Shown here piece by piece: positions 29,097-55,638 of a DNA stretch of 64,000 nt (position 1 is the stretch's first letter; each line of letters starts with the position of its first letter). The position numbers and the translations under genes are program-made. The DNA is from Amycolatopsis regifaucium. Its GTDB lineage: Bacteria; Actinomycetota; Actinomycetes; Mycobacteriales; Pseudonocardiaceae. The stretch is from the NCBI RefSeq assembly GCF_001613935.1, contig NZ_LQCI01000002.1, forward strand, positions 434,001-498,000, written 5' to 3'. The notes under the pieces were generated by a model that was not told the DNA's origin, made no database searches, and was given only the letters and a program-made list of their open reading frames with translations.

Positions 29097-29217
29097 AGGC
29101 CTGGTACCGCTGGTTTTCGTGGTCACTGCGAGGTTTGGCGGCGCTCGGCGCCGGCGCCGGTTGCGTCGTGGCTCCCGCGGCGGAAGCCACGCACGGCGAC
29201 AAGAGAGAGGAAACGGC

Positions 29218-38570: not shown

Positions 38571-39616
38571 CCAGAACGACCACGGCCGAAGCGACCGAGT
38601 GGCAGGGCGGGGATCTGCGCGCGCTCGGCGAGCAGGCCTATCTGGACCTCGGCACCTGCATCAACCGGTACGGCCCGCCGACCAGCGTCGGTTCGGCGCT
38701 GCGCGCGGTGGACATCCGCTCGCTGCGGGCCCATCCCTACGACGCCGAGGAATTGTTCGTCTCGGCCTACGCCGAGTACCTCGGGGCCGACGGCGGCGAG
38801 CTGGTGGCCGGACGCGGCATCACTGAGTTCATCCGGTTGCTGTCGGCCCATTTCCCGGCGCGGAGCACCGCCGTGGTCACCCCCGACTACACCGACAGCA
38901 TCCGGTGGATCACCAACCACGTCGGGCCGACCGCCGGCGTACCGGAGACCGCGGAGACCAGAGCGGCCCGCGTCGCCTACGCGATGCGGCACTACGACTG
39001 TGTCCTGCTGTCCAACCCCAACAACCCGCTGGGCCTGTACGTGCCGTCGGAGGAGCTGGCCGCGATCTGCCGGGCCAACTCCGGCTCCACGCTGATCGTC
39101 GACGAGGCGTACATCGACTTCGCCGACGGTGGCTCGCGGCGTTCGATGATCTGGTCCGGGCTCGGCAACGTCGTCGTGCTGCTCTCGCCCAACAAGCTGT
39201 TCGGCATCGCGGGAACCAGGACCGGGGTGATGTGGACACCCGACGCCGCTTTGCGCGCGGCGATCCGGGCCCGGCAGCTGAACTGGTCGATCTCCTACCT
39301 GGACGCGCTCGTCGCCGCCGAAGCGCTGCGCAATCTCGGCTGGGTGGCACACAGCCGGAGCCGGTTGAGTGCCACCGCGAACCGGATGGAGGCCCTGCTG
39401 TGCGCGCGGTATCCCGGCGTGGTCACCGGCGTGCCGGTGCACTACCGGTTCGTGTACACGGAGGACGCCGAACGGGAACACGAGCGGCTGCTCCGGCACG
39501 GAGTGGTGGTCCGGGTCTTTTCCGGCTCCCAGGCCGGCCGGGTGAGCGGACTGCGGATCACCGCGCCCACCGAGGCCGAGTACCCGGTGCTGGCCGCCGC
39601 GCTGCGCGGCGACTGA
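38567..39616 (+). CDS. HisC/CobD-like PLP-dependent enzyme
   Basis: A 349-residue fold-type I PLP protein of the histidinol-phosphate aminotransferase group. Lys210 in LSPNKLFGIAGTRTG binds PLP, SNPNNPLGLYVP is the NPNNP motif, and TLIVDEAYIDF holds the Asp. The group includes amino-acid aminotransferases and CobD, which decarboxylates threonine phosphate to an amino-alcohol phosphate. Such an enzyme is not part of ordinary aromatic PKS clusters. It could supply the amine joined by the amidotransferase at 44366 (inference). Confidence 0.85.
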   Translation: MTRTTTAEATEWQGGDLRALGEQAYLDLGTCINRYGPPTSVGSALRAVDIRSLRAHPYDAEELFVSAYAEYLGADGGELVAGRGITEFIRLLSAHFPARSTAVVTPDYTDSIRWITNHVGPTAGVPETAETRAARVAYAMRHYDCVLLSNPNNPLGLYVPSEELAAICRANSGSTLIVDEAYIDFADGGSRRSMIWSGLGNVVVLLSPNKLFGIAGTRTGVMWTPDAALRAAIRARQLNWSISYLDALVAAEALRNLGWVAHSRSRLSATANRMEALLCARYPGVVTGVPVHYRFVYTEDAEREHERLLRHGVVVRVFSGSQAGRVSGLRITAPTEAEYPVLAAALRGD

Positions 39617-41240: not shown

Positions 41241-42425
41241 TTACCAGCGGACCGGGAGGCTTTCCGCGCTTCTCGCGAGCAGGCCGGGCGACCAGCGCAC
41301 GTCGGCGACGGGCACGGCCAGCGCCAGCCCCGGAAACCTGGTGACCAGCGCGTGCAACACCACGCGAAGCTGCAGGAGCGCCAGCTGCGCGCCGAGACAC
41401 CGGTGGAGTCCGTATCCGAAACCGAGGTGCGGATTCGGCCGCCGGGTCAGCTCGAGCTCGTCCGGCCGGTCGAAGACCTCGCCGTCGCGGTTGGCCGCGG
41501 TCAGCGCCACCACCACGTAGTCCCCCTCCCGCAGAAGCGCTCCGCCGAGCTCGACGTCCTCGGTCACCCGGCGCGGGAACGCCGTGCTGATACCGAGCGG
41601 ACTGAACCGCATCAGTTCTTCGACGGCGTTCTCGATCAGCCCCGGGTCGGCGACCAGCCTGTCGTACTGCCTGGGCGCGGTGAGCAGCTGATAGCAGAAG
41701 TTCCCGAGCTGCATGGTGGTGGCGTCGTGGCCGGCGATCACCACGGTGGCGCACAGCGCGACGGCTTCCTCGTCGCTCACCCCGCCCCGGACCAGATCGG
41801 CCACGAGCCCGGTGCCCGGCGATCGGCGGCGTTCGCGCACCAGATCACCGAGCCCTTCCCACAGCCGGAGCCCCGCGGCCTTGGTCTGCTCGGCGGTTTG
41901 CCTCGCCAGGGCCGTCGCCAGCAGGGAGCCGGTCAGCTCGACGAATTCTTCGCGGCTTTCCCCGGGCACACCGAGCAGTTCGGCCATGACGAGCGCGGGC
42001 AGCGGCGCCGCGACCGCGGAGACCAGGTCCCCCGGTGGGCCCTGCGCGCTCAGCCGATCCAGCAGGCCTGCCACGAAAGCTTCCGTGACCGCCTCGAGCC
42101 GCCGGACGCCGGGCCGGGTGAACGCGGCGGCCACCAGGCCGCGCAGTCTGCTGTGCTCCGGCTCGTCGTGGTTCAGGATCAGGTTGGCCCGCTGCGGCAT
42201 CGGCACCACGCGCGGCTCGTCCGCGCCGAGCGAGTCCGCCCGGGAAAACCGCCGGTCCCCGAGCACCGTCCGGACGTGCTCGTAACTGCTCACCAGCCAG
42301 GCGGCCGAGCCGAAGGGCAGCCGCACGCGGACCGGTCCCTCGTCCCGCAGCCCACGAAACCGGGCGTCCGGGTCGAGCGCGTGGGCGTCGGCGAGCGGGA
42401 AGACGAGTTCGGGCGCGCCGGTCAT
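41241..42425 (-). CDS. cytochrome P450
   Basis: A 394-residue P450. Heme Cys343 lies in FGYGLHRCLGAQLA, ExxR in EELMRF, and the I helix reads VIAGHDATTMQLG with the usual Asp but Ala at the next position. It oxidises the aglycone. ATG 42425 was chosen because it overlaps the stop of the secreted beta-helix gene by ATGA, which places it second in that operon. No dedicated ferredoxin adjoins; the one at 35916 may serve both. Confidence 0.92.
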   Translation of the reverse strand: MTGAPELVFPLADAHALDPDARFRGLRDEGPVRVRLPFGSAAWLVSSYEHVRTVLGDRRFSRADSLGADEPRVVPMPQRANLILNHDEPEHSRLRGLVAAAFTRPGVRRLEAVTEAFVAGLLDRLSAQGPPGDLVSAVAAPLPALVMAELLGVPGESREEFVELTGSLLATALARQTAEQTKAAGLRLWEGLGDLVRERRRSPGTGLVADLVRGGVSDEEAVALCATVVIAGHDATTMQLGNFCYQLLTAPRQYDRLVADPGLIENAVEELMRFSPLGISTAFPRRVTEDVELGGALLREGDYVVVALTAANRDGEVFDRPDELELTRRPNPHLGFGYGLHRCLGAQLALLQLRVVLHALVTRFPGLALAVPVADVRWSPGLLARSAESLPVRW

Positions 42426-43840
42426 CGCGCCGTGAACCGGTCGCGGTGGGCACCCGCGTCGACCGGCGGCGCGGGGAAGGCGCCCGTCCCCGGGTGGCCG
42501 GTGATGGAAAGGAACACGTTGCGGCGGTAGGTGCTCTTCGGATCGTCGATCCGCGAACCGCCGGGACGGCCGGAGAACAGGTTGCCGACGAACGACGCGC
42601 CGAAGTCCCCGACGTTGTTCACCATCACCTCGGCGACGCTGGTGCGCACCACGTTGCCGTACACCGAAAGCGAGCCGGGATCGCCGCACATCATCGTGAA
42701 GACCCCGGTGCGGTCGCCGTTCGGATACCGGCCGAGCGAGTTGTCGTCGAGGCTGACGTTGTACCGGAACACCGTGCGGTCCGAAGTGGCGTCGGGGTCG
42801 TTGCAGACGATCAGCAGGCCGCCGTCGCTGCGGCGGCTGAGGTTGTGCTCGTACACCGTTCCCAGCGACGCGGACTCGACCATGAAGGCCTGTGACGGCA
42901 GCGTTTGCCCGCCTTTCCCGTCCGAGACGGTGTTGTAGCGGATCCTGGTGCCGTTCGAGTTGTAGGCGAACATGCCGGTGGTGTACTTCGTCCCGCCGAT
43001 CGCGTAGCCGTCGAGCACGTTGTCCTCGACCAGCGCGTCGAGTCCATTGTAGACACCGATACCGTCGCCGTGGATGGTGCGCAGCGTGTTCCCGGTGATC
43101 CGCAGCCCGGTGATGGGCACGTACGCGGACCCGGTGCCGCTGGGGTACTCGGGACGGCGTTGCCAGTCCGAAGAGGTGCCGATGGCGGTCCGCCCGGTCC
43201 TGGTGACGGTGTTGCCGTCGACGAGGACGTCGTCGAAGCCGGTCGGCCGCTCGGTGCCCGCGGCCTTGAAGAGAATCCCCCCGCTCGGATCGGGGTCGCC
43301 GGGGTTCTGGCACTGGCAGCCGTTGACGTCGTGTACGTCGACGTCACGCACGACGTAGTGCCGTCCGATGCCGTAGTCGGTCAGCCGGGCGTAGACGCCG
43401 AACCGGATCTCGTGCGCGCCGGGCGGCGGCCCGAAATTCGACAGCGCGAGGTGCTCGATCTCCCAGCCTTCGACGTTGTCCAGCAGTACGGCCGCGAGCG
43501 CGCCGTTGGCGTCGATGGCGGGTTTGGCACCGGAGCCGTAGGACCCGACGGTGATCGGCTTCCTCGGTGTACCGGAGCCTTTCGGCGCGAACATGCCGTC
43601 GCACCGGGTGCCCGCGCGGAACGCGATACGGTCGCCCGGCCGGTAGGCCTGCGCGCCCGCTCTCGCCACCGACGCCCACGGCGCCGAGGCGCGCGTGCCG
43701 GATGCCGCGTCCGATCCTCGCTGACAGTCCACAAAGTACGTCGCTGGGCGGGTGCCCGCGGCCGACGGCGTGGCGGACGACAGGATGACCAGCAGTGCGG
43801 CCGCCAGCGCACCCACCGAACGTGCTCCCAGTGCTGTCAT
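42422..43840 (-). CDS. secreted right-handed parallel beta-helix protein A
   Basis: A 472-residue protein with a signal peptide of about 28 residues (GALAAALLVILSSATPSAAG). The mature N-terminus (YFVDCQRGSDAASGTRASAP) and repeated units such as LRITGNTLRTIHGDGIGVYN and ALVEDNVLDGYAIG are those of pectate-lyase-like beta-helices. Such folds bind or cleave polysaccharides; no lyase residues can be pinned down. It is translationally coupled to the P450 downstream, which is odd for an exported protein. It is a paralogue of the gene at 51792. ATG 43840 follows gggagaa. Confidence 0.85.
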   Translation of the reverse strand: MTALGARSVGALAAALLVILSSATPSAAGTRPATYFVDCQRGSDAASGTRASAPWASVARAGAQAYRPGDRIAFRAGTRCDGMFAPKGSGTPRKPITVGSYGSGAKPAIDANGALAAVLLDNVEGWEIEHLALSNFGPPPGAHEIRFGVYARLTDYGIGRHYVVRDVDVHDVNGCQCQNPGDPDPSGGILFKAAGTERPTGFDDVLVDGNTVTRTGRTAIGTSSDWQRRPEYPSGTGSAYVPITGLRITGNTLRTIHGDGIGVYNGLDALVEDNVLDGYAIGGTKYTTGMFAYNSNGTRIRYNTVSDGKGGQTLPSQAFMVESASLGTVYEHNLSRRSDGGLLIVCNDPDATSDRTVFRYNVSLDDNSLGRYPNGDRTGVFTMMCGDPGSLSVYGNVVRTSVAEVMVNNVGDFGASFVGNLFSGRPGGSRIDDPKSTYRRNVFLSITGHPGTGAFPAPPVDAGAHRDRFTAR

Positions 43841-43979
43841 CGCGTTTTCTCCCGTTCCCCACCGAGGTCCGTACCGGGAGGAGCCTGGGCGGGACCGCTC
43901 GAACCGGGCTCGAACGCCGGTTATCGAGAGGGAAGGCAAGGTGACAGTGGGGCGGCTGTGACCTCGGCGGCCGGTCGTG

Positions 43980-44038
43980 AAGTACATGAAGGTCCCCTTC
44001 CTTGCGCCTAGCGCAGGGAAGGGGGCGTTCATGTACTT
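43980..44038. repeat. palindromic intergenic repeat (copy 2)
   Basis: Arms of about 28 bases (aagtacatgaaggtcccctt at the left end) pair with few mismatches around a ctag centre. The left end agtacatga and the inner ccccttccttgcgcc match the copy at 53386. Confidence 0.8.
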
Positions 44039-44224
44039 GGGTGAAGCGTGACTCGCGTGCCTGGATCCCGGACCCGGGCCGCTATCCCGCCCGAACACGC
44101 GAAGGCCTCTTCCCTGCTTTCAGGGTCAGGGTCCCGGCAATGTCGCATAACCACTGGTCGGCGGTGGAATTCGGCGTGAGCGGGCTCGCACGAGAGGCCA
44201 CGTCGGCGTCCAGAATCAGGGAAA

Positions 44225-44275
44225 GCGTGAAGGCCCCTTCCTCGGCTCAGCCGAGGGGGAAGGGGGCCTTCACGC
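44225..44275. repeat. palindromic intergenic repeat (copy 3)
   Basis: gcgtgaaggccccttcctcg pairs with a right arm that ends gggggccttcacgc, with small bulges. It is the third member of the same style of hairpin, 187 bases from copy 2. Confidence 0.75.
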
Positions 44276-44365
44276 GCCGCCGCTTCCAGATGGCGTCGAG
44301 CCCTGTTCGAGCCTCACTGACGAGCCTGCGTCGAAGTGGCTTCGATGCGACGAGAGGGCTGGCAC

Positions 44366-46222
44366 ATGTGCGGAATCACCGGTTGGATCGACTACCACCG
44401 TGACCTGGCCACGGAACGGCCGACCGTGGAGTTGATGACCGAGGCGATCGCGAGCCGCGGCGTCGACGATCACGGGCTCTGGTTGCGAGGCCACGCCTGC
44501 CTCGGGCACACCCGCACGGCGGTGATCGACCCGGCGGGCGGCGCGCAGCCGATGATCGCCGACGAGGACGGAAGCCCCACCGCGGTCTTGGCCTACAGCG
44601 GCGAGATCTTCAACTTCCAGCAGCTGCGCACCGAACTGCGTGAGCGGGGGCACAAGTTCCGCACCCGCAGTGACACCGAGGTGGTGCTGCGGTCGTACCT
44701 GGAGTGGGGGGTGCGCTGCGCGGAGCGCCTCGAGGGCATGTTCGCGTTCGCCGTCTGGGACCTGCGGACCGAGGAACTGGTGCTGATCCGTGACCGGATG
44801 GGCATCAAACCGCTTTTCTACGCGAAGATCCCCGGCGGATTCATCTTCGGCTCCGAGCCGAAGGCGCTGCTCGCGCATCCCGCCATCCGGCCGACGGTGG
44901 ATCTGGACGGACTCCGGGAGATCTTCTCCACGGCCAAACGTCCCGGCGCCGCGGTGTTCCGTGACATGCAGGAACTTCGCGCCGGCCACACGCTCACGGT
45001 GAGCCGCAAGGGTCTGTACGAACAGACCTACTGGAAGCTCGAGGCCAAACCGCACGAGGAGGACCTCGACGGCACCATCGCGCACGTGCGCTCGCTGCTG
45101 TCCGACATCGTGCTGCGCGAACTGGTCGCGGACGTACCGCTGTGCGTCGGCTTGTCCGGCGGGCTGGACTCCTCCGCCATCACCGCGTTGGCCGCCCAGT
45201 GGATGTGGAAACTCGGTGGCGACCGGGTGCGCACGGTCACTCACGCTTTCGAGGGCTACGAAGAGAACTTTCGGCCGGACGACGTCCGCGACACCCCGGA
45301 CGGCCCGTTCGCCGCCGAGATGGCCGCGCTGGTCCGGTCCGATCACACCGATCTCATGATCCGGACCGCCGACCTGATGGACCCGGAGACCCGGCGGGCG
45401 GTGCTGCTGGCACAGGACATGCCGTCCACTCTCGGCGACATGGACACTTCCCACTACCTGATGCTCAAGTCGGTGCGCGACCACTCCACGGTGATGCTCA
45501 CCGGCGAGGTCGGTGACGAGGTGTTCTGCGGCTTCCGCTGGATGTTCGACCCGGACTTCACCAATTCCGGCACCTTTCCCTGGGTGGCCAACGAAAACAA
45601 GATGCGCAGCACCGGCCACGGCCGCGGGCTGTTCGATCAGGGACTGTTCAGCCGGAAGCTGGACATGGCAACCTACTACGCCGACAACTACCAGCAGACC
45701 ATCGACGAAACTCCTCACCAGGAAGGGGAAAACGGTCTGGAGCACAAGATGCGCGAAATCTGTTACGCGCACTTCACCAGGTGGCTGCCGATGCTGCTCG
45801 CCCGCGGCGACCGGCTGGCGATGGCACACGGGCTCGAGACCCGCATCCCGTACTGCGACCACCGGTTGATCGAATACCTCTACAACACCCCGTGGGCGTT
45901 CAAGACGTTCGACGGCCGCGAGAAGAGCCTCCTGCGGGCAGCCGTCGGCGACCTGCTGCCCAAGTCCATTGTGGAGCGCCGGAAGAGCCCGTGGCCGGTG
46001 ACCCAGGACCCGGCGTACACCGAGGCACTGCACCGCGAATTCGCCGGGGTGCTGGCGGATCCGTCTTCACCGGTGCTGCCCCTGCTCGATCTGAAGGCCT
46101 CGAAGGAGACAGCGGCGAACCCGACCGGTTCCGCCCACGAATGGCAGAGCCGGATCAACGTGGAAACCGCACTGCAGTTCAACGCCTGGCTCCGCCACTA
46201 CAAGGTCGACCTCGCCATCTGA
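44366..46222 (+). CDS. asparagine-synthetase-like amidotransferase
   Basis: A 618-residue class II glutamine amidotransferase plus ATP-dependent synthetase. Cys2 in MCGITGW is the glutaminase nucleophile, so ATG 44366 is the right start although the frame extends upstream. The C-terminal domain has the PP-loop SGGLDSS at about 264-270. In lysolipin, xantholipin and tetracycline clusters such enzymes amidate a polyketide carboxyl or build the lactam. The same is likely here. It has its own transcript, with a terminator behind it. Confidence 0.93.
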   Translation: MCGITGWIDYHRDLATERPTVELMTEAIASRGVDDHGLWLRGHACLGHTRTAVIDPAGGAQPMIADEDGSPTAVLAYSGEIFNFQQLRTELRERGHKFRTRSDTEVVLRSYLEWGVRCAERLEGMFAFAVWDLRTEELVLIRDRMGIKPLFYAKIPGGFIFGSEPKALLAHPAIRPTVDLDGLREIFSTAKRPGAAVFRDMQELRAGHTLTVSRKGLYEQTYWKLEAKPHEEDLDGTIAHVRSLLSDIVLRELVADVPLCVGLSGGLDSSAITALAAQWMWKLGGDRVRTVTHAFEGYEENFRPDDVRDTPDGPFAAEMAALVRSDHTDLMIRTADLMDPETRRAVLLAQDMPSTLGDMDTSHYLMLKSVRDHSTVMLTGEVGDEVFCGFRWMFDPDFTNSGTFPWVANENKMRSTGHGRGLFDQGLFSRKLDMATYYADNYQQTIDETPHQEGENGLEHKMREICYAHFTRWLPMLLARGDRLAMAHGLETRIPYCDHRLIEYLYNTPWAFKTFDGREKSLLRAAVGDLLPKSIVERRKSPWPVTQDPAYTEALHREFAGVLADPSSPVLPLLDLKASKETAANPTGSAHEWQSRINVETALQFNAWLRHYKVDLAI

Positions 46223-46230
46223 CCGCGGCG

Positions 46231-46270
46231 CGGCCCGGTTTCCGTCCCGGCGGCCGGGCCGGGCCGTTTT
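46231..46270 (+). terminator. intrinsic terminator behind the amidotransferase gene
   Basis: cggcccgg (46231-46238) pairs with ccgggccg (46259-46266), followed directly by tttt. Confidence 0.65.
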
Positions 46271-46307
46271 CACGGTGCCGCGTGTTCCCGTTCCGGAGAG
46301 GCTTCCC

Positions 46308-47876
46308 ATGACGACCATCCCGGCGCCGTCCGTGCCGCGCCATGCCGGTCTGGCCATGTTCGTACTCGCCTTCGCCTCGTTCATGGATCTGCTCGACGTC
46401 GGCATCGTCACCGTGGTGGTGCCGGTGATCCAGCGTGATCTGGGGGCCACCTACGCGCAGAGCCAGTGGTTCGTCGTCGCCTACGTCCTAGCGTTCGCGG
46501 TCGTGCTGGTGGTCGGCGGCAGGCTCGGGGACAGCCACGGCCGGCGTCGGATCTTCCTGATCGGGGTCACCGGCTTCACCGTGTTGTCGGCCTGCTGCGC
46601 CGCCGCCCCGAATGCCGAACTCTTCATCGTGGCCCGGCTGCTGCAGGGCGCTTTCGGCGCGTTGATGACGCCTCAGGTGTTCGCGATGATGCAACTGCTG
46701 TTCCGGCCGGAAAGACGCGGGACCGGCTTCATGATCTACGGCGCGGTGATCAACTTGGCCCAGGTCGGCGCGCCGCTGCTCGGCGGGCTGCTGGCGACCC
46801 GGGATCTCTTCGGCCTCGGCTGGCGGGCGATCTTCCTGATCAACGTCCCGGTCGGGGCCGCGATCGTGATCGCGACCCTGGCGCTCGTAGGCGAGTCCCG
46901 GTCTCCGCGCCGTCCGCGCCTCGACCCGATCGGCATCACGCTGATCGCGGTGGTCACCGCGCTGGTGATCGTCCCGCTGCAGCAGGGCAGGGAGGCGAAC
47001 TGGCCGTGGTGGCTGCTCGCGATGCTCGGCGCGGCGGTGCCGCTGCTGCTGGTGCTGATCGACCATGAGCGCAGGCGCGGCGGGGACGCGGTGCTGCCGA
47101 CGAGCCTGTTCCGGCTGCGCTCGTTCTCCGCCGCCGGTCTGCTCGCGACGCTGGTCATGTCCACCATCATCTCGGTGAACCTGATCCTCGTCTGGTTCAC
47201 GCAGCTCGCGCTCGGCTGGACCCCCATGCAGACCGCCGTCAGCCTCGTCGGGTTCGCGGTGGCACTGGTGACCGTCGGCACCTGGGGCGCCGGCAGGGTA
47301 CCGCGCTTCGGCCGGGGCACGGTCGCCGCCGGGTCGGTGCTGCTCGCGCTCGGCATCGCCGTGCTGAGTTCGCTGGTGAGCGTGACCGGGACCGCCCTGT
47401 CTCCACTGGCGGTCTCCGCAGCGCTGTTCGTCGCGGGGTCCGGGATGGCCTTGGTCGTCGGCACGCTGGTGAACATCCAGCTTCGCGACGTCCCGGAAGG
47501 TGACGCCGGTGCGGCGGGCGGCATCCTGTCCGCGATCTTCCAGTTCGCCGGCGCCGTCGGCGTCGGCGTGGCGGCGACCGTTTTCTTCGCTCTCGTGGCA
47601 CACGGCGGAAACCAGGCCGCGGCCGCTCCGCCCGGCACCCCGGCCGCCGCGTTCGCCTCCTGCGTACGCGACCAAGCCGCCGACACGAACCCGTTCTCCC
47701 AGCCGGTTTCCTGCCGCTCAGCGGAGCTGGACCGGCCGGCCGTCGTCGCCGCGCTGGCCGACGCGAAGCAGCGCGCGTTCGCGGACGCCACCACCTCGAC
47801 CTTGTGGATCCAGGTGGGCGTCCTCCTGCTCGCGGCCGCCCTTTCCCGGCTCCTGCCACCGAAACGGGCCGGATGA
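46308..47876 (+). CDS. MFS drug-efflux transporter, 14-TM DHA2 type
   Basis: A 522-residue membrane protein with about 14 hydrophobic segments. GGRLGDSHGRRRIFLIGVTG is the loop 2-3 motif and ARLLQGAFGALMTPQVFAMM motif C-like. It belongs to the EmrB/QacA drug-resistance group and is a likely self-resistance exporter. ATG 46308 follows ccggagagg. It is the second MFS pump of the cluster. Confidence 0.92.
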   Translation: MTTIPAPSVPRHAGLAMFVLAFASFMDLLDVGIVTVVVPVIQRDLGATYAQSQWFVVAYVLAFAVVLVVGGRLGDSHGRRRIFLIGVTGFTVLSACCAAAPNAELFIVARLLQGAFGALMTPQVFAMMQLLFRPERRGTGFMIYGAVINLAQVGAPLLGGLLATRDLFGLGWRAIFLINVPVGAAIVIATLALVGESRSPRRPRLDPIGITLIAVVTALVIVPLQQGREANWPWWLLAMLGAAVPLLLVLIDHERRRGGDAVLPTSLFRLRSFSAAGLLATLVMSTIISVNLILVWFTQLALGWTPMQTAVSLVGFAVALVTVGTWGAGRVPRFGRGTVAAGSVLLALGIAVLSSLVSVTGTALSPLAVSAALFVAGSGMALVVGTLVNIQLRDVPEGDAGAAGGILSAIFQFAGAVGVGVAATVFFALVAHGGNQAAAAPPGTPAAAFASCVRDQAADTNPFSQPVSCRSAELDRPAVVAALADAKQRAFADATTSTLWIQVGVLLLAAALSRLLPPKRAG

Positions 47877-47979
47877 GTTTCCCCGGCGTGGGGTCCCAGT
47901 TCCGCTCCAGCGCCACCCGACCGGATCTCGGCAGGCTCGGAACGACCAGGCAAGAACCCGATTGGAGAAGGCAAAGCGC

Positions 47980-48837
47980 ATGGACATCGGAGTAGGGCTA
48001 CCCAGTACGGTGCCGGGCGCCGCGGGCGCCGAGCTGATCGGCTTCGCCAAACGTGCCGAAGAACTGGGATTCAGTACGTTGGCGGTCCTCGACAGGCTCG
48101 TCTACGACAGTTACGACAGCCTCGTCGCGCTGGCGGCGGCCGCCGCGGTGACCGAACGGATCACCCTCGCCAGCACCATCCTGCTCGCCGCATACCGGCC
48201 GAGTGCGGCGGAATTGGCCAAGCAGCTCGCCAGCATCGACCGGCTCAGCGGTGGCAGGCTGGTGCTCGGTGTGGCGGCGGGGGGCCGCGAAGACGACTTC
48301 GCCGCGACAGGGGTGCCGTACCGGCGCCGTGGCGCCCTGCTGGACCGGTTGCTCGAGGACCTCGTCGAGGTGTGGTCGGGCGGTGGCCAAGTGCCCGGCA
48401 TCGGCCCGAAGCCGGTGCGAGATCGGATCCCGATCTGGATCGGCGGGCACTCCGAGGCGGCGCTCGCCCGCGCGGCCAAGCACGGCATCGGCTGGATCTC
48501 CCCTGGCGGCAGCGCCGCCGCCTACCCCGACCTGGTCGAGCGGGCCACCACCGCGTTCGCCGCCGCCGGCCGCGACGACAAACCGAAGATGGCCGCCATG
48601 ACCTACGTCGGCCTTGGCGAAGACAACGCCTCTCGCGGCGCCCAGTACCTGCGCGACTACTACTCCTACATCGGGCCGAAAGCCGAGTTCCTGGCCAAAG
48701 GCCTGATCTCCGACGAAGGCAGGCTCCGCGAAACGATCGACAACTACGCCGCGGCCGGCTGCGACGAACTGCTGCTCTTCCCCACCACCGCGGACCCTGG
48801 ACAGCTCGACCAGCTGGCCAAGGTCGCCTTCGCCTGA
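47980..48837 (+). CDS. luciferase-like (LLM class) flavin/F420 oxidoreductase
   Basis: A 285-residue TIM-barrel oxidoreductase. GVGLPSTVPGAAGAELIGFA, then LSGGRLVLGVAAGGREDDF and IPIWIGGHSEAALARAAKHG are the family blocks. Members use F420 or FMN to reduce or oxidise substrates. It lies between the pump and a methyltransferase and probably performs a late redox step. The cofactor cannot be decided from the sequence by eye. Confidence 0.88.
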   Translation: MDIGVGLPSTVPGAAGAELIGFAKRAEELGFSTLAVLDRLVYDSYDSLVALAAAAAVTERITLASTILLAAYRPSAAELAKQLASIDRLSGGRLVLGVAAGGREDDFAATGVPYRRRGALLDRLLEDLVEVWSGGGQVPGIGPKPVRDRIPIWIGGHSEAALARAAKHGIGWISPGGSAAAYPDLVERATTAFAAAGRDDKPKMAAMTYVGLGEDNASRGAQYLRDYYSYIGPKAEFLAKGLISDEGRLRETIDNYAAAGCDELLLFPTTADPGQLDQLAKVAFA

Positions 48838-48877
48838 TTCTCCAACCCCGACCCGACCGAGCCCGAGGAGCCGGCAT

Positions 48878-49900
48878 ATGCCCAGCACCAGCACCGCCCC
48901 CGCGGCGTCCACTTTGGACACCGCGGAGCAGATCATCCGTCTCGGCAACCGATTCTCCGACGCCAAGGCCTTGCTCACCGCCGTCGAACTGGATGTCTTC
49001 GGGGTCCTGCGGGAAAACCCCGGCACCGCCGAAGAGATCCGAGAGCGGCTGGACGTCGCCGGGCGAGGCCTGCCCGACATGCTGCACCTGCTCACCGCGC
49101 TCGGCCTGCTCGACCACGTGGACGGCCGGTTCCACAACAGCCCGTCGGCGGCGAAGTACCTCATCCGCGGCACCGACGACTACATCGGCGGCTTTCTGCA
49201 GCGGTCCAACCGGAACCTGTACCCGGCGTGGGGCAAGCTGACCGAGGCGCTGCGCACCGGCCGGCCGCAGGCGGTGGGTAACTTCGACCTGGTGGTGGCC
49301 GATCCTCGTCTGCTGCGCCAGTTCATCGGGATGATGGACGGGCTGACCCAGGTACTCGGCCCCCAGCTGGTCGCCGCGTACGACTTCGCTCCCCACGGCA
49401 CGGTGCTCGATGTCGGCGGCTGCCGGGGGAACCTGCTGTCCAAGGTGCTCGGCGCCAACCCGGGGCTCACGGGAACGGTCTTCGACCTTCCCCAGATGGA
49501 GCCGTTCTTCGACGAGCTGATGGCCGAGACGGGGTTGACCGGCCGGGCCACCTTCCACGGCGGGAACTTCTTCGAGGACCCGCTGCCCCGCGCGAATCTG
49601 GTCAATCTCGGGCACGTCCTGCACGACTGGGATCCCGGGCAGCGCAAGGAGCTGGTGGCGAAGGCCTACGCCGCGGTCGAACCCGGCGGCAGCCTGCTCA
49701 TCTACGACCGCATGCTGGACGACGAGCCCGAGCATGTGGAGAACCTGGTGATCAGTCTCGACATGCTGCTGGTCACCGACGGCGGTTCCGAGTACACCGT
49801 GACCGAGGTGAAGGACCACGCCACGGCCGCGGGCTGCCGGGACATCACCGAGCAGCCGCTGGGCGCGTACGACACCCTCGTCATCTGCCGCAAACCCTGA
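48878..49900 (+). CDS. SAM-dependent O-methyltransferase B
   Basis: A 340-residue enzyme, clearly homologous to methyltransferase A over its whole length (shared ALLTAVELxVFG, MMDGLxQVLGP, and HVLHDWDPGQR). Its SAM motif is VLDVGGCRGNLLS, with Cys where A has Gly. It probably methylates a second phenol. It is followed by a terminator. Confidence 0.93.
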   Translation: MPSTSTAPAASTLDTAEQIIRLGNRFSDAKALLTAVELDVFGVLRENPGTAEEIRERLDVAGRGLPDMLHLLTALGLLDHVDGRFHNSPSAAKYLIRGTDDYIGGFLQRSNRNLYPAWGKLTEALRTGRPQAVGNFDLVVADPRLLRQFIGMMDGLTQVLGPQLVAAYDFAPHGTVLDVGGCRGNLLSKVLGANPGLTGTVFDLPQMEPFFDELMAETGLTGRATFHGGNFFEDPLPRANLVNLGHVLHDWDPGQRKELVAKAYAAVEPGGSLLIYDRMLDDEPEHVENLVISLDMLLVTDGGSEYTVTEVKDHATAAGCRDITEQPLGAYDTLVICRKP

Positions 49901-49902
49901 GG

Positions 49903-49939
49903 CCCGCGGCCTGCCGGGAACGTACCGGCAGGCCGCGGG
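49903..49939. terminator. bidirectional terminator hairpin
   Basis: A perfect 15-bp stem (cccgcggcctgccgg, 49903-49917, and 49925-49939) with a 7-base loop, between two convergent genes. Confidence 0.8.
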
Positions 49940-49947
49940 GGGCGAGC

Positions 49948-51210
49948 TCACCGCAGCAGCCTGTCGAACACCTCGCCCAGCACGAGTTCCGGCGATTCCG
50001 GCGCGACGTCGGTGAGCCAGCCGACATAGCCGTCCGGGCGGATCAGCACGGCGCCGTCGTCGCCGATCGGGTAGCGGTCCGGTGCCCGGCCCTGGACGTC
50101 GCCGAAATCGGCGTCCGCCGAGCTGCGGCCGAGCCGGTAGGCCCGCAGCGGAAGGCACCTGCGGCTCGCGATCCGGGTCGCCGCCGAGGTCCATCCCACT
50201 CCGCCGCTAGTGGTCAGCAGGACGAACGAGCCGTCGAACAGGTCATGGGTGGACAGCCTGGCCCCGGCCCGTTCCAGCCACAGGTGCGGAGCCCGCTCCC
50301 CGGGACAGGCCCGCACGCCGAGCCGGTCACCGAACACCGAGGCCGGCCGGTCCCCGGCCAGCGCGCCCTCGGGGTACCGCTGCCCCAGCGTCAGCACTTG
50401 TTCCTCGGCCTCGTTCATGGCCGGAGGTGTCCACGTCGGCCACCGCGACAACCGCTTTTCCACTTCGAGGGCGACGGGCCGGCGTTCGGTCTCGTAGCTG
50501 TCGAGCAGGCCGGGCCCGGCCCAGCCGTGGATCACCCCGGCGATCTTCCATGCCACGTTGTGGGCCTCCTGGACCGCGAGGCCCGCCCGGAGCGCGCCGT
50601 CCTCGGGCCACCGGTGCGCGCTGTCCCCGACCAGGAACACCCGGCCGACGCGGAAGGACTCGGCCGTGCCGGACGGGTACGGCCACGGATCGGCCTGCCG
50701 TTCGGCCGTCTGGAGTTCCAGCCGGATGGCCAGAGCGGCCGCGGCGAGGCCGCCTGCCCCCTCCGCCGCGATCACGTAGTCCGCGCGCACGACGTCGCGT
50801 CGTCCGCCGACGCGGTCCAGCAGGACCGCGTCGGCCCCGTCGGCGTCGGTGGCGATCGACACCAGCTCGGTGCCGAACCTGGCGTCGGCGCCCCGCCGCC
50901 GGGCCGCTTCGAGCAGCACCGGCTCGACCTCGTGCCGCTCCCCCTCGTGGTACGCGCACGGACAGAGATCCGGCCACCGCCCGCGGACAGGCGGCGAGTC
51001 ACCGCGGATCGCTTCTTCCAGACCCAGTGCCCGGTAGATCTCCATGGTCCGCTGGTCGACGCCGTCCCCGCCACCCGTCGACCGCACCCCGGGCCACCGT
51101 TCCACCAGTACCGCGCGCACCCCGTGCCGAGCCAGGAACAACGACGAAGCGAGACCGGCGAGACCCCCGCCGACGATCAGGACCAGCACCCGTTGCGGCT
51201 CATTCGGCAT
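49948..51210 (-). CDS. FAD monooxygenase homologue lacking its substrate-binding segments
   Basis: A 420-residue member of the aromatic hydroxylase family. It is the closest relative in the window of the 529-residue enzyme at 59117 (both have QRTMEIYRALGLE, VEPxLxxAARxRGA, AWKIAGVxHGWAG, and the same C-terminal domain). About 25 residues are missing after EEAIRG. Some 85 more are missing between AAEGAGG and RVFLVGDSAH, where the substrate domain should be. The DG motif is altered to EG and the PPAG loop to RWPEDGALRAG. The FAD-binding N-terminus is intact and the frame is open. It may be a non-hydroxylating partner or a decaying gene. ATG 51210 was chosen. Confidence 0.8.
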   Translation of the reverse strand: MPNEPQRVLVLIVGGGLAGLASSLFLARHGVRAVLVERWPGVRSTGGGDGVDQRTMEIYRALGLEEAIRGDSPPVRGRWPDLCPCAYHEGERHEVEPVLLEAARRRGADARFGTELVSIATDADGADAVLLDRVGGRRDVVRADYVIAAEGAGGLAAAALAIRLELQTAERQADPWPYPSGTAESFRVGRVFLVGDSAHRWPEDGALRAGLAVQEAHNVAWKIAGVIHGWAGPGLLDSYETERRPVALEVEKRLSRWPTWTPPAMNEAEEQVLTLGQRYPEGALAGDRPASVFGDRLGVRACPGERAPHLWLERAGARLSTHDLFDGSFVLLTTSGGVGWTSAATRIASRRCLPLRAYRLGRSSADADFGDVQGRAPDRYPIGDDGAVLIRPDGYVGWLTDVAPESPELVLGEVFDRLLR

Positions 51211-51791
51211 CGATACCCACCTAGATTGCTTCGGCGAAGTGGTGTGAGCGGTCGAACGCGATCGGTGATCGTGCCCTGGTCCCGTCGGGAGAACTCGCCC
51301 GCGACCAGACGGGTCGGTGTCGCTCACCGGTCCGGAATGGACGAGCGGCCGGATCGGCGCCGCGACAAGGCAAAACGACTGTCGCATCCGGAACGGAGCG
51401 CGGAATAGTCACCCACGGCCGTCCACTGGAGACACCAAGTGACGCGGTCCCACGTTCGCACTGCGACACCTCACACAGTCATATTCGAGTTAGTTATTAA
51501 GTCCTTAGTCCTCTTATGATTATACCCAACGTAATGGACCATGCGTCCAGTGACACGACGCGACCAGTCACCTTAGACATAGTTATAAGTTAGTTATTTC
51601 ACTAATGGATGCCGTCGAACCGACGTGCTTAGACTCTGCGTGACAAGTCGGGTGTCGCACGGCGGGTATCGGACTCAGTGGAGTACACCCGCTCGCACGA
51701 ATCGGGCTTATTCACATAACCGAGGGTGACGGCCTGCCTGGGGGCGGCCGGAGGACATCACAGACGCAGGAACGAACAAGGGGGTACATCC
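51211..51791. promoter_or_regulatory. divergent AT-rich regulatory region
   Basis: 581 bases between the short FAD gene and beta-helix protein B. The stretch 51480-51610 is strongly AT-rich and contains an 11-bp direct repeat agttagttatt at 51488-51498 and 51588-51598, exactly 100 bases apart. Between them are ttatgattata (51514-51524) and catagttataag. These look like operators or promoters. No gene was seen. Confidence 0.55.
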
Positions 51792-53318
51792 ATGCACGGA
51801 AAACGACCCGCCGTGGCCAAGGTCCTGGCGATCGCGGCCTCACTGCTCCTCGGCGCGAGCGTGGCGGCCACGCCCGCCGCGGCGGACCCACCCAAGGTCC
51901 CCCGCACGTTCTTCGTGGACTGCGCACGCGGTCTCGACGTCGGCCCCGGCACCAGTCCGGACCAGGCCTGGAAGCTGTCGAAAGCCAACACCATGAAGTA
52001 CCTGGCCGGAGACACGATCCTGTTCAAAGCCGGCGTCACCTGCACCGGCACCTTCGCGCCGACGGGTTCCGGCACGGCGGGCCGCCCCATCAAGGTCGGC
52101 AGGTTCGGCTCCGGCACCAAGCCCCGCATCGACGGCAAGGGCGCGGCCAGCGCGATCCACCTCCGCAACGTCGCGGGCTGGGAGCTGCGCGACCTCGACA
52201 TCACGAACACCGGCCCGGCCCCCGCGGCGAATCAGCAGCGCGCGGGCATCTACGTCCTGCTCGAGGACTACGGCGTCGGCAGCCACTATCTTGTGTCCAA
52301 TGTGGACGTACACGACGTCAACGGCTGCGACTGCCGGTTCCCGCCGAGCGGTGGGGTGGTGTTCTACGCCGCGGGCTCCAAGACCCCGACGCGGTTCGAC
52401 GACGTCACCGTGACCAAGAGCACCATCACGCACGTGGACCGGATCGGTGTCGGCATGCTGTCCACCTGGCTCGGTTCACCGCTGGTGCCGATGACGAAGG
52501 TGCGGTTCACCGAGAACACGGTGCGCGACATCGGCGGCGAGGGCATGGTGGTGTTCAACGGTTCGGGCGCGATCATCGAGCGCAACATCATCGACGGCTT
52601 CAACGAACGGTCCACTCAGGACAGTGCGGGTGCGTACGGCTGGAACGCCGAGGGCACCCGGATCCGGTACAACGACGTGTCGAACGGCAAGGGCCAGGCG
52701 ATGGCGTTCAGCCTGGACGACGCGAACATCGACACGATCATCGAGTACAACTTCTCGCACGACAACAAGGGCGGCTTCCTGCTGCAGTGTTCCGGTAACG
52801 AACTGAAGAACGCCAACGGGATCGCTCGGTACAACCTCAGCCAGAACGACGCGGCCGGCACCGACGAGCCGTACACCAGCACGGTGACCATCGCCTGCGG
52901 CGACGCATCGAACACCCAGGTCTACAATAACGTGTTCTACGCCCAGAACAGCCCCCGGCTGGTCACGAACGTCAGCACCAGCGCGACCGGCGTCCACTTC
53001 ACCAACAACATCTTCTACGGCCAGCCGTCGGGCTCTTCCATCAACGACACCACCGGTCAGTATGTGAACAACGTGTTCTACCAGGTTTCCGGGGTTCCGG
53101 CCGACAGCATCACCTCGATCATCGGCGACCCGCGGCTGGTGTCCCCCGGTACGGCGACGTCGATGTCGACGACGAACGGCTACCGGCTCCGGGAGGCGTC
53201 ACCCGCGATCCAGCACGGTGCGCCCGTGGCGAACAACGGCGGCAAGGACTTCTTCGGCAACCCGCTCACCGACAAACTGAACATCGGTGCCTACGAAGGG
53301 GCCGGGGTCACCCCCTGA
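51792..53318 (+). CDS. secreted right-handed parallel beta-helix protein B
   Basis: A 508-residue protein with a signal peptide (VAKVLAIAASLLLGASVAAT, then PAAADPP). It shares with protein A the N-terminal block (FFVDCARG, FAPTGSG, GSGTKPRIDG) and the DVHDVNGCDC segment. Many beta-helix turns follow (VRFTENTVRDIGGEGMVVFN and AIIERNIIDGFN). It continues about 40 residues beyond A. It has its own promoter region and a perfect palindrome after it. The substrate is unknown; a polysaccharide or cell wall is the family norm. Confidence 0.87.
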   Translation: MHGKRPAVAKVLAIAASLLLGASVAATPAAADPPKVPRTFFVDCARGLDVGPGTSPDQAWKLSKANTMKYLAGDTILFKAGVTCTGTFAPTGSGTAGRPIKVGRFGSGTKPRIDGKGAASAIHLRNVAGWELRDLDITNTGPAPAANQQRAGIYVLLEDYGVGSHYLVSNVDVHDVNGCDCRFPPSGGVVFYAAGSKTPTRFDDVTVTKSTITHVDRIGVGMLSTWLGSPLVPMTKVRFTENTVRDIGGEGMVVFNGSGAIIERNIIDGFNERSTQDSAGAYGWNAEGTRIRYNDVSNGKGQAMAFSLDDANIDTIIEYNFSHDNKGGFLLQCSGNELKNANGIARYNLSQNDAAGTDEPYTSTVTIACGDASNTQVYNNVFYAQNSPRLVTNVSTSATGVHFTNNIFYGQPSGSSINDTTGQYVNNVFYQVSGVPADSITSIIGDPRLVSPGTATSMSTTNGYRLREASPAIQHGAPVANNGGKDFFGNPLTDKLNIGAYEGAGVTP

Positions 53319-53385
53319 CGGTCTCGGACGTCGCGTCGGGCCCTCTCCGCGTCTAAGCTTGAGGTACGCGGTCATGTTCGCGTGA

Positions 53386-53530: not shown

Positions 53531-54328
53531 TCACGAATCCTGATCCCGGGTCGCCAGTACGATGTAGACACTGCCGCCGGCGAAGGCCGGGGCCTGGCGG
53601 ACGCGGACGTCGTAGCCGTGGCCCGCCAGTTTGGCCACCACCGCGCCGAGCCTGCCCTCCCGGTCGTGCACCTCGGCCAGCACCCGCCGGATCCGCGGCC
53701 ACAGGTCCTCCCGCAGCCCTTCGAGCACCTCGAGTTCGGCTCGCTCGACGTCGATCTTGAGCAGACCGACCCGCTCGATCCGGTGCTCGTCCAGTACCGA
53801 ACTGAGGGTGACCACCTCGACCGTCTCGATCGTCCGGACGTTGTGCATCTCCCGGACGAGCGGTCTCGCCTGCTCGTCGAAGCCGGCGTTGTCCAGGTAG
53901 GCCTCGAGGTTGAGATCTTCGTCGGTCTCGTCGGTGTGCAGAGTCGACTTCGAGCTGACGTAGGGGTGATACACGAATTCCTGTTCGCCGTTCTTCGCCG
54001 CGACGGCGAGCTTCAGCGCCGTGCCGTTGGGCACATGCTCGGCGAAGTTCCTTTCCAGGCAGGAGAAAGTGGCGGCGGCGGGTTCGAAGGCGATGATCCG
54101 GGATGCCGGGGCGCGCTCGGTGAAGCACAGCGATGCCAGGCCGATGTGCGCGCCGACGTCGAGGACGACCTCGTCGGCCCCCACCCCCGCGATCGCCTCG
54201 GCGTAGGGGGTGTCCCCGTCGATCTCGGCCCACAGGATCCGCGCCTCGGTTTCGTCGGCGCAGCTCACCCGCACCCCGTTCGGCAGTTCGTAGGTCCCGA
54301 TCGCGTCTCGGGCTGGTTCGGCGGTCAT
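53531..54328 (-). CDS. FkbM-family methyltransferase
   Basis: A 265-residue SAM enzyme. VVLDVGAHIGLASLCF is the SAM-binding motif; LLKIDVERAELEVLEGL is the FkbM block. FkbM enzymes O-methylate polyketide or sugar hydroxyls. It is last in a minus-strand unit with a glycosyltransferase and sugar reductases, so a deoxysugar 3-O-methyl group, as in oleandrose, is a reasonable target (inference). Confidence 0.88.
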   Translation of the reverse strand: MTAEPARDAIGTYELPNGVRVSCADETEARILWAEIDGDTPYAEAIAGVGADEVVLDVGAHIGLASLCFTERAPASRIIAFEPAAATFSCLERNFAEHVPNGTALKLAVAAKNGEQEFVYHPYVSSKSTLHTDETDEDLNLEAYLDNAGFDEQARPLVREMHNVRTIETVEVVTLSSVLDEHRIERVGLLKIDVERAELEVLEGLREDLWPRIRRVLAEVHDREGRLGAVVAKLAGHGYDVRVRQAPAFAGGSVYIVLATRDQDS

Positions 54329-54330: not shown

Positions 54331-55638
54331 TCAGCTCTTTCCCGAAGTAGTCGTCGTCCGGCGTCGCGCCAGTTCTTCCAGCACCCCGACCACCTCACTC
54401 GGCGCCGGCCGTTCCCGCAGCTCCCGGCACACCCTGGCGGTGTTCCGGAGATACGCGGGGTCCGCCAGGATCTCGAGCGAGGCCTTCCGGATGTCGTTCT
54501 CGTTCGCCACGTGCCCGGCGATGCTCCGGCCCGCGCCCGCGGCTTCGATCCGGCGCGCGATCACGTGCTGGTCGAAACCGTGCGAGATGACGAGTTGAGG
54601 GACGCCGCCCGCGAGCGACGTCATCGCGGAGCCCGCCCCGCCGTGGTGCACGACGAGGTCGCACCGCGGCAGCACCAGGTGCAGTGGCACGTTCTCCAGC
54701 GGCCGCACGTTCGGCGGCAGCGGACCGAGGTCCCGCAGGTCCGCGGCATTGGCGGCGACCACCACTTCGGCCGCGGTGTCGGTCAATGCCCGGACGACCG
54801 CGGGGACCGCGAGCGCCCGGTCACCGAAGATCTGCCGGGACGAGTTACCCCAGATGACGCAGATCCGCGGCCTGCCGCGATCCGGTTCCGGCAGCCAGTC
54901 GGGCAGCTCCCCCGGCCCGTTGTAAGGCAAGTAGCGAATCGGGAGGCGAACGGCGGAAACGAGACCGGGCTCGGTGCTCACCGGGCAGGGGTCCAGCACG
55001 TATCCGGGTTCGGGAGCGGTATCGGGGAGGCCGTAACGGGCGAGCGCGTCGGTCAGCGGACGGTTCAGGACGTACTCGTCGTCGAACTGGACGAGGTCGT
55101 GGATCCCGGCCGTCTCGTCGAGCCCGGCGAAGGCGAGCACCATCTCCTCCGGACCGACCGGACCCCAAAGATGGTTGATCGACGGCACGTCCAGCACCCG
55201 GCCCACCAATGGCCCCTCGAAGCTGATCGGATCGTGCACGACCAGGCCGGGCCGCCAGCTCCTGGCGAACGCGACCACGTTGTCCGCGCTGCGCTTGGCC
55301 GCGGCCACGCCCGCCGACCGCAGCCGTGCCGTGACCGCCGTCAGATCGATCTCGTCGAGATCGCGCACTTCGGCCCCGGTCTCCGGATGCGGTGGCGGAG
55401 TCGGATACGGCCACTTCCCACGCCGGGCCTGGACGGCGTTCACCCAGCGGGCGTGCACGAGCTGCTCCGTCCCGCTCAAGATCGGCACCGGCACCAGCCC
55501 CGCCGCCGCCACGTGCGGTGTTTCCGAAGCGGCGCAAACGACCCTGACCTCGTGGCCGGCCGCCTGGAGTGCCCAGCCGAGTGGCACCATCGGGAAATAG
55601 TGGCTACGCCAGCCCGACACCGTGAACAGCACGCGCAT
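54331..55638 (-). CDS. GT-B glycosyltransferase (GT1, antibiotic type) B
   Basis: A 435-residue enzyme, longer than A and C. RVLFTVSGWRSHYFPMVPLG begins the acceptor domain; LVVHHGGAGSAMTSLAGGVP is the donor site with the HHGG motif. It should transfer one of the deoxysugars made by the adjoining genes. ATG 55638 follows caggagtg. Confidence 0.93.
   Translation of the reverse strand: MRVLFTVSGWRSHYFPMVPLGWALQAAGHEVRVVCAASETPHVAAAGLVPVPILSGTEQLVHARWVNAVQARRGKWPYPTPPPHPETGAEVRDLDEIDLTAVTARLRSAGVAAAKRSADNVVAFARSWRPGLVVHDPISFEGPLVGRVLDVPSINHLWGPVGPEEMVLAFAGLDETAGIHDLVQFDDEYVLNRPLTDALARYGLPDTAPEPGYVLDPCPVSTEPGLVSAVRLPIRYLPYNGPGELPDWLPEPDRGRPRICVIWGNSSRQIFGDRALAVPAVVRALTDTAAEVVVAANAADLRDLGPLPPNVRPLENVPLHLVLPRCDLVVHHGGAGSAMTSLAGGVPQLVISHGFDQHVIARRIEAAGAGRSIAGHVANENDIRKASLEILADPAYLRNTARVCRELRERPAPSEVVGVLEELARRRTTTTSGKS

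What the first reader, a model, noticed from the sequence alone, without database searches (positions are those of the whole stretch)
41241..53318. Two secreted parallel beta-helix proteins embedded in an aromatic polyketide cluster
Genes 42422-43840 and 51792-53318 encode related exported beta-helix proteins with signal peptides. Gene A overlaps a tailoring P450 by ATGA, so the exported protein and the cytosolic oxidase are made together. I know of no role for such proteins in aromatic polyketide biosynthesis. Ideas: an extracellular maturation or binding step, cell-wall protection of the producer, or a polysaccharide target that aids the product.
Basis: partly seen in the sequence, partly recalled or inferred. 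Interest (0 to 1): 0.75.

Follow-up and report, generated by a model that had tools for sequence, protein, structure and literature searches.

The report
Repurposed sugar-enzyme proteins in antibiotic clusters
Two secreted proteins in this soil bacterium's antibiotic gene cluster descend from a sugar-cutting enzyme that lost half of its catalytic pair, and relatives sit in similar clusters of five bacterial genera, pointing to an overlooked step in making or handling these antibiotics.

Summary
Gene A (42422-43840, minus strand) and gene B (51792-53318, plus strand) encode related (45% identity), apparently exported right-handed beta-helix proteins inside a type II polyketide cluster, and A overlaps a P450 gene by ATGA. 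The cluster looks like a glycosylated polycyclic-xanthone cluster, probably of the kigamicin kind. The fold is that of GH136 lacto-N-biosidases (Z 39.9 and 36.7 to TnX). Relatives lie in 12 further clusters that I compared, from five genera; the cluster-borne copies placed in a tree form one clade. All 17 clade members examined have lost the GH136 acid/base aspartate but keep Asp or Glu at the nucleophile position; 36 of 36 relatives outside keep both. One copy (Kibdelosporangium) lacks a signal peptide and four of six conserved cysteines, which argues against a wall or polysaccharide role. Compared clusters with the gene carry one conserved glycosyltransferase (12 of 12, against 1 of 12 without). 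Best reading, inferred only: a GH136-derived protein working on the glycosylated polyketide, perhaps a glycosidase needing no acid because a phenol leaves easily. A pure binder or new tailoring chemistry are close rivals. The open library searched gave no earlier description.

The parts
42422..43840 (-). gene A: exported beta-helix protein, GH136 fold, A-type; acid/base position Pro315, nucleophile position Glu322; lacks the C-terminal ~50 residues of B
41241..42425 (-). cytochrome P450 whose start overlaps the stop of gene A (ATGA)
51792..53318 (+). gene B: exported beta-helix protein, GH136 fold, B-type; acid/base position Gln302, nucleophile position Asp309
33090..34256 (+). GT1, EryCIII-like glycosyltransferase; homologue (50% or more) in 12 of 12 other beta-helix clusters compared
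29119..30474 (+). FAD monooxygenase that tracks the beta-helix gene (start uncertain)
15341..16621 (-). KS-alpha of the type II PKS
25195..26457 (+). chain-length factor (KS-beta)
44366..46222 (+). asparagine-synthase-like amidotransferase (start chosen at MCGITG)
38567..39616 (+). CobD-like PLP enzyme
54331..55638 (-). GT2, EryCIII-like glycosyltransferase (start uncertain)
60861..62087 (-). GT3, EryCIII-like glycosyltransferase
57429..58799 (-). NDP-hexose 2,3-dehydratase (start uncertain)
62120..63436 (-). RfbH-like 3-dehydrase (DegT fold)
55652..56389 (-). NAD-dependent epimerase/reductase, deoxysugar type
56392..57429 (-). Gfo/Idh/MocA oxidoreductase, deoxysugar type
53531..54328 (-). FkbM-type methyltransferase (possible sugar O-methylation)

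Best explanation
SHOWN: A and B are two old paralogues of a beta-helix family with the GH136 (lacto-N-biosidase) fold. The cluster-borne copies placed in a tree form one clade, present in a subset of pentangular-polyphenol (polycyclic xanthone) type clusters. The clade has lost the GH136 acid/base aspartate but keeps a carboxylate at the nucleophile position. INFERRED: the protein works on the glycosylated polyketide itself, not on wall or matrix glycans. The conserved glycosyltransferase GT1 puts a sugar on the polyketide inside the cell, and the beta-helix protein, usually outside, removes, trims or moves it through the retained carboxylate. Loss of the acid catalyst would be tolerable if the leaving group is a phenolate of the polyketide, which needs no protonation, as is known (recalled) for myrosinase and for acid/base mutants acting on activated aryl glycosides. 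In this cluster, with three glycosyltransferases, A and B could divide such work along an oligodeoxysugar chain.
For: Fold and homology: B model to TnX Z 39.9, rmsd 2.0 A, 451 residues, 28% identity, GH136 at ranks 1-3 with a gap to the next family at 31.5; A model to TnX Z 36.7; profile search 7v6m E 7.2e-69. Clade: 15 rows labelled cluster-borne plus one orphan form one branch, support 100/96. Catalytic pair: acid/base Asp kept in 36 of 36 rows outside the clade, 0 of 16 inside; nucleophile position D or E in 16 of 16 (columns again on 16+16+16 rows); a 17th copy agrees. Aromatic residue near the sugar-stacking Trp of ErLnb136 kept as W/Y/F in 15 of 16 (column 480; W548 named in PMC7335108, section read). 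GT1 at 50% identity or more in 12 of 12 beta-helix clusters compared against 1 of 12 without. In the A. rifamycinica (G430) cluster, GT1 and a beta-helix gene are present and no gene hits this window's deoxysugar genes (three small ORFs there had no window hit); the same holds for G424 and A. eburnea. The cytosol-type copy in Kibdelosporangium fits a small-molecule partner. Purifying selection.
Against: No activity or product data. GT1 occurs without the beta-helix gene in G684, and a published table names glycosyltransferases LtmGT, XanG and Arx3 while listing no beta-helix protein for ltm (PMC9127795, section read). For model A, AlgE epimerases (34.8) tie with the third GH136 row and outrank 6kqs (31.9). 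The nucleophile position varies between D and E, unusual for a strict glycosidase nucleophile. A second Asp of the motif (column 508) is lost in 13 of 16. The GH136 helper domain is absent from A and B. A cytosolic copy fits poorly with a purely extracellular unmasking scheme. The loss of the Asp is best read as one event, so it is not 17 independent cases. The GT1 contrast rests on chosen clusters and a cut-off; at 45% with other gene calls it was 9 against 2. Nothing excludes a pure binder.
Confidence: 0.35

Rival explanations
1. Non-catalytic binder. The GH136 pocket was kept as a binding site for the (glycosylated) polyketide, so the protein sequesters, solubilises or carries the toxic product outside the cell, giving self-protection or delivery.
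For: Acid/base lost and then free to vary (P, Q, T, N, G, V), D/E exchange at the other position, as expected if catalysis was given up. Hydrophobic export-type N-terminus in 10 of 11 named clade loci. Two paralogues kept together in this cluster, in G425 and in Actinoplanes.
Against: A carboxylate is nevertheless kept at the nucleophile position in 17 of 17. The Kibdelosporangium copy looks cytosolic.
Confidence: 0.25
2. New tailoring chemistry: a cyclisation, epimerisation, dehydration or ring-forming step on the polyketide by the remodelled pocket, not a reaction at a sugar.
For: Overlap with oxidase genes of two different kinds (P450 here; FAD monooxygenase in A. rifamycinica and A. eburnea); one FAD monooxygenase family tracks the gene (10 of 12 against 0 of 12 at 45% identity); a cytosol-type copy exists. 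Beta-helix epimerases and lyases are the next closest folds.
Against: No substrate or precedent; GT1 tracks the gene at least as well.
Confidence: 0.22
3. Polysaccharide- or wall-acting protein (protection of the producer, or a glycan target that aids the product).
For: Fold neighbours include many polysaccharide lyases and hydrolases; most copies look exported.
Against: LnbX has a pocket, unlike the cleft of polymer-acting beta-helix enzymes (PMC8106489, passages); acid/base lost only in this clade; the clade is found almost only in a subset of one cluster type (one orphan, L024); Kibdelosporangium copy without signal peptide.
Confidence: 0.12
4. Passenger genes without a role in the pathway.
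For: Absent from many related clusters; one clade member, L024 in S. morookaense, lies apart from any PKS gene seen.
Against: One clade, kept in clusters of five genera in different positions, 0.7-53 kb from KS-alpha, purifying selection.
Confidence: 0.06

Closest known systems
GH136 lacto-N-biosidases (TnX 7v6m, LnbX 5gqc, BsaX 7v6i, ErLnb136 6kqs)
   Same: Whole-length right-handed beta-helix fold and detectable sequence homology; carboxylate at the nucleophile position; aromatic residue near the sugar-stacking Trp
   Different: Acid/base Asp lost (Pro315 in A, Gln302 in B); no helper (GH136I) domain in the protein; placed in polyketide clusters; activity unknown
Pentangular-polyphenol / polycyclic-xanthone clusters (xantholipin xan, arixanthomycin arx, lanthomicin ltm)
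   Same: Same gene types (KS-alpha/beta, cyclases, asparagine-synthase-like amidotransferase, ring monooxygenases, a glycosyltransferase) as tabled for ltm/xan/arx in PMC9127795
   Different: No beta-helix gene in the ltm table; this window adds deoxysugar genes, two further glycosyltransferases and two beta-helix genes
Oleandomycin-type intracellular glycosylation and extracellular deglycosylation (OleI/OleD and OleR; recalled, no call)
   Same: Works-like analogy: sugar on inside, off outside
   Different: OleR is an unrelated glycosidase; no such activity shown here
Myrosinase (recalled, no call)
   Same: Retaining glycosidase that lost its acid/base residue because the leaving group is good
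   Different: GH1 barrel, sulfur aglycone; only an analogy for the chemistry

Membership tests
GH136 glycoside hydrolases | right-handed beta-helix fold of the GH136 catalytic domain | tested here: met
   Z 39.9 / 2.0 A / 451 residues for B, Z 36.7 / 2.6 A / 417 for A (AlgE at 34.8 close behind)
GH136 glycoside hydrolases | sequence homology to characterised members | tested here: met
   phmmer E 1.9e-25 for B to 7v6m, E 3.9e-17 for A to 6kqs, profile E 7.2e-69
GH136 glycoside hydrolases | acid/base aspartate (D568 of ErLnb136) | tested here: not met
   Gln302 in B, Pro315 in A; 0 of 16 in the clade, 36 of 36 outside; residue roles from PMC7335108, passages and section 8
GH136 glycoside hydrolases | nucleophile aspartate (D575 of ErLnb136) | tested here: inconclusive
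   Asp309 in B, but Glu322 in A; clade 10 E and 6 D
GH136 glycoside hydrolases | helper domain or subunit (GH136I) | tested here: inconclusive
   A and B match only residues 242-663 of ErLnb136, the catalytic domain, so no fused helper; a separate helper gene was not searched for
GH136 glycoside hydrolases | lacto-N-biosidase activity | not testable with these tools
   needs an assay
pentangular-polyphenol (polycyclic xanthone) clusters | type II KS-alpha/KS-beta, polyketide cyclases, anthrone-oxygenase-type gene, asparagine-synthase-like gene | tested here: met
   same gene types in PMC9127795 Table 1
pentangular-polyphenol (polycyclic xanthone) clusters | XanO4-type xanthone-forming monooxygenase | not tested
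   19473-21077 is a candidate by size and family, but no XanO4 sequence was compared
kigamicin cluster | genes suited to a trideoxyhexose (amicetose) and a methylated dideoxyhexose (oleandrose), several glycosyltransferases | tested here: met
   2,3-dehydratase, RfbH-like 3-dehydrase, reductases, FkbM methyltransferase, three GTs; kigamicin sugars from PMC9327801, passages; the sugar assignment is inference
kigamicin cluster | shown to make kigamicin | not testable with these tools

The most novel reading that the evidence does not exclude
A GH136-fold protein has been turned, once, into a dedicated pathway protein of aromatic polyketide clusters: an acid-catalyst-free, phenol-releasing glycosidase or transglycosidase (or a new kind of polyketide tailoring enzyme) that acts on the antibiotic itself, mostly outside the cell, so that the final step of an aromatic polyketide pathway is extracellular.
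Probability: 0.4. Interest if true: 0.78.

Novelty: new variant of a known kind. Interest (0 to 1): 0.62.

Why it matters
Pentangular polyphenols such as xantholipin, albofungin and kigamicin are strong antibacterial or antitumour agents. Some of their clusters hold a glycosyltransferase of unexplained use (XanG is tabled in PMC9127795) although xantholipin itself carries no sugar (recalled). If a secreted, remodelled GH136 relative edits or holds the glycosylated product, it would help explain such genes, place a step outside the cell, and give a new tool for sugar editing of phenols. It also gives a sharp evolutionary test case: one clade, one lost catalyst, one cluster type.

Tried and rejected
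Plus-strand reading of gene A: no gene. First scan of named genomes with A alone found nothing; the scan with alignment A1 gave 48 loci. Idea that the beta-helix gene is present whenever the GT is: rejected by G684 and by the ltm table. Idea that the gene marks all close KS-alpha clusters: rejected, 8 of 12 genus genomes and 0 of 20 other class genomes. Short palindromes beside A and B as special regulatory sites: rejected, the genome has about 140 copies. Papers: searches listed nothing; some searches listed papers of which I opened nine (PMC9327801, PMC7335108, PMC8106489, PMC9469721, PMC7902042, PMC13200232, PMC9127795, PMC5984834, PMC8037709) and PMC8532670, by passages or single sections; none of the opened parts describes a beta-helix protein in a type II PKS cluster. 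The original xantholipin, lysolipin, arixanthomycin, amexanthomycin and kigamicin papers and all supplements were not seen. Foldseek was run for B only; for A only the second aligner. A family missing from these lists is not excluded.
Full report
WHAT IS THERE. Gene A (42422-43840, minus) and gene B (51792-53318, plus) are genes for 472 and 508 residues. Both match Pfam Beta_helix and start with what reads as a signal peptide. They are 45% identical and are the only matches found in the whole genome. Gene A's stop overlaps the start of a P450 gene as ATGA. B stands alone on its strand. Gene A, like its G425 orthologue, lacks about 50 C-terminal residues that the other five rows of alignment A1 have.

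THE CLUSTER. KS-alpha (15341-16621), chain-length factor (25195-26457), two polyketide cyclases, an anthrone oxygenase, several FAD ring hydroxylases, a luciferase-like enzyme, O-methyltransferases, an asparagine-synthase-like amidotransferase and a CobD-like PLP enzyme largely match the gene types tabled for the lanthomicin, xantholipin and arixanthomycin clusters (PMC9127795, section 12 read). The right side adds an NDP-hexose 2,3-dehydratase, an RfbH-like 3-dehydrase (659.6 bits against a cut-off of 423), two reductases, an FkbM methyltransferase and two further EryCIII-like glycosyltransferases besides GT1. That suits a trideoxyhexose such as amicetose and a methylated dideoxyhexose such as oleandrose, the sugars of the kigamicins (PMC9327801, passages). 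Kigamicins are listed for A. regifaucium and A. alba (PMC8532670, passages). Of 80 genomes of the genus, two (this one and G425) hold this KS-alpha at 98% or more, and the 60 kb of G425 compared are syntenic, most genes above 90%. That the genus is Amycolatopsis follows from named loci that coincide in contig length with genus genomes (L031, A. rubida, 458,490 bases = G436 contig 32; L032, A. rifamycinica, 267,306 = G430 contig 42). Kigamicin as the product is an inference.

THE FOLD. AlphaFold models are confident (B pLDDT 89.6, pTM 0.89; A 88.3, 0.87). The best solved structures are GH136 lacto-N-biosidases: for B, TnX Z 39.9 (2.0 A over 451), LnbX 39.5, BsaX 38.4, then AlgE6 at 31.5; for A, TnX 36.7, LnbX 35.7, BsaX 34.9, with AlgE epimerases level with the last at 34.8 and ahead of ErLnb136 at 31.9. 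Sequence settles it: phmmer E 1.9e-25 for B to 7v6m and 3.9e-17 for A to 6kqs; a family profile gives 7.2e-69.

THE FAMILY. A scan of named genomes gave 48 loci. Ten of the 48 lie in type II PKS clusters by their neighbours: Actinosynnema, S. monomycini, A. circi, K. banguiense, A. eburnea, A. rubida, A. rifamycinica, S. mashuensis, S. morookaense and Actinoplanes siamensis; several of the other loci have short contigs, so their context is partly unseen. In A. circi the KS-alpha is on another contig, so membership there rests on neighbouring sugar and reductase genes. A tree of 52 proteins (46 of the 48 loci plus A, B, two copies of G425 and one each of G424 and G193; L040 and L068 dropped as broken or short) puts all 15 rows labelled cluster-borne and one orphan (L024, S. 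morookaense, no PKS neighbour within 10 kb) on one branch with support 100/96; two label changes are needed against 13.2 in shuffles. G537, a further genus genome with a copy 6 kb from KS-alpha, was not in the tree. For eleven genomes with non-clade relatives and a KS-alpha match (one of them L040's, not in the tree), the beta-helix gene and KS-alpha are on different contigs in all eleven, weak evidence where contigs are short. Within the clade there are A-type and B-type lineages; this cluster, G425 and Actinoplanes have one of each. Distances to KS-alpha run from 0.7 to 53 kb (the A. circi figure is not real), so it is not one conserved neighbourhood carried along.

THE LOST CATALYST. In E. 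ramulus GH136 the acid/base is D568 and the nucleophile D575 (PMC7335108, passages and section 8). They are seven residues apart; in the aligned chain one Asp pair of that spacing fixes the columns (my reading, where chain positions would run two ahead of the published numbers). The acid/base Asp is kept in 36 of 36 rows outside the clade and in 0 of 16 inside, where it is P, Q, T, N or G; the second Actinoplanes copy has V. The nucleophile column is Asp in all 36 outside, and Glu (10) or Asp (6) inside, Glu in the 17th. A further Asp of the motif (column 508) is kept in only 3 of 16. An aromatic residue near the sugar-stacking Trp is kept in 15 of 16 (column 480). Two extra cysteines (179 and 181 in B) occur in 13 of 16 clade rows and in none of the four outside rows printed. 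The tree makes the loss most simply one event, so the count is not 17 independent trials.

A CYTOSOL-TYPE COPY. The K. banguiense gene starts at an ATG behind GGAGGGGG with no hydrophobic stretch, and four of the six clade cysteines are replaced. Ten of the eleven named clade loci checked do have a hydrophobic N-terminus. The simplest reading is that this copy works inside the cell, so the partner is a pathway compound rather than wall or matrix.

WHO ELSE HAS IT. In 80 genus genomes, clade-level beta-helix hits (E <= 3e-207) occur in 8, and all 8 are among the 12 with KS-alpha at about 70% identity or more; 4 further genomes have only distant relatives. In 394 class genomes, 20 others have a close KS-alpha (E <= 1e-186) and none of them has a beta-helix match at E <= 1e-40 (only three or four candidates per genome were scored). 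I compared 12 clusters with the gene, besides this one, and 12 without: the 4 genus ones and 8 of the 20 class genomes (chosen by KS-alpha identity; G801 and G650 among those left out; G415, G871 and G741 cover only 40-46 kb). GT1 at 50% or more: 12 of 12 against 1 of 12. FAD monooxygenase 29119 at 45% or more: 10 of 12 against 0 of 12. In a separate clustering of called genes at 45% identity the beta-helix family itself came out at 11 and 0, and GT1 at 9 and 2; cut-offs and gene calls matter. In the G430 cluster no gene hits this window's deoxysugar genes, and three small ORFs had no window hit, so its GT, if active, probably draws on a general nucleotide sugar.

MECHANISM. Shown: fold, descent, lost acid/base, kept carboxylate, cluster association, export-type N-terminus in most, purifying selection (dN/dS 0.24 for A, 0.21 for B; ten neighbours 0.03-0.22). 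Inferred: that it acts on the glycosylated polyketide. I prefer a remodelled glycosidase or transglycosidase whose phenol leaving group makes the acid unnecessary (analogy to myrosinase recalled). Against it stand GT1 without the gene in G684 and a GT without a beta-helix gene in the ltm table, and the D/E variation. A binder and a new tailoring enzyme are close behind.

NOVELTY. I found no description of a beta-helix or GH136-like protein in a type II PKS cluster in the library searched (no hit or no such title; the main texts of PMC9327801, PMC9469721, PMC7902042, PMC13200232 and PMC9127795 hold no word beginning 'helix'). Subscription papers on xan, lysolipin, arx and kigamicin, and supplements, were not available. 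I call it a new variant of a known kind: known fold, new setting, changed active site.

Noticed in passing
window 43976-44047 and 53381-53452: A palindromic repeat of up to 72 nt (copies 88% identical) lies just upstream of gene A and just downstream of gene B; its half-site occurs 140 times forward and 137 times reverse in the genome (control 0), so it is a dispersed palindrome with roughly 140 copies.
   Followed up: partly
window 15341-16621 and 25195-26457: KS-alpha and chain-length factor lie 8.6 kb apart on opposite strands instead of side by side; they are also apart in A. rifamycinica and Actinosynnema but adjacent in S. mashuensis and G684.
   Followed up: partly
L027 9950-11443: Kibdelosporangium banguiense copy of the beta-helix protein has no signal peptide and has lost four of six conserved cysteines.
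   Followed up: yes
window 49948-51387: FAD monooxygenase that looks like a shortened paralogue of the one at 59117-60706; RdmE-type profile matches in three separate stretches.
   Followed up: no
L024 9944-11512: S. morookaense has an A-type clade member away from any PKS gene seen, near a GH9-family gene and a lipase-like gene, besides the B-type copy in its PKS cluster.
   Followed up: partly
L032 11548 and L029 11455: In A. rifamycinica and A. eburnea the beta-helix gene overlaps an FAD monooxygenase start by 4 bases, a second kind of oxidase coupled to it.
   Followed up: yes
G684 contig C1, about 973.7-975.2 kb (locus L141): A cluster with GT1 but no beta-helix gene carries next to KS-alpha a protein with a Tat-like leader that might be a multicopper oxidase (a guess from its first 50 residues).
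   Followed up: no
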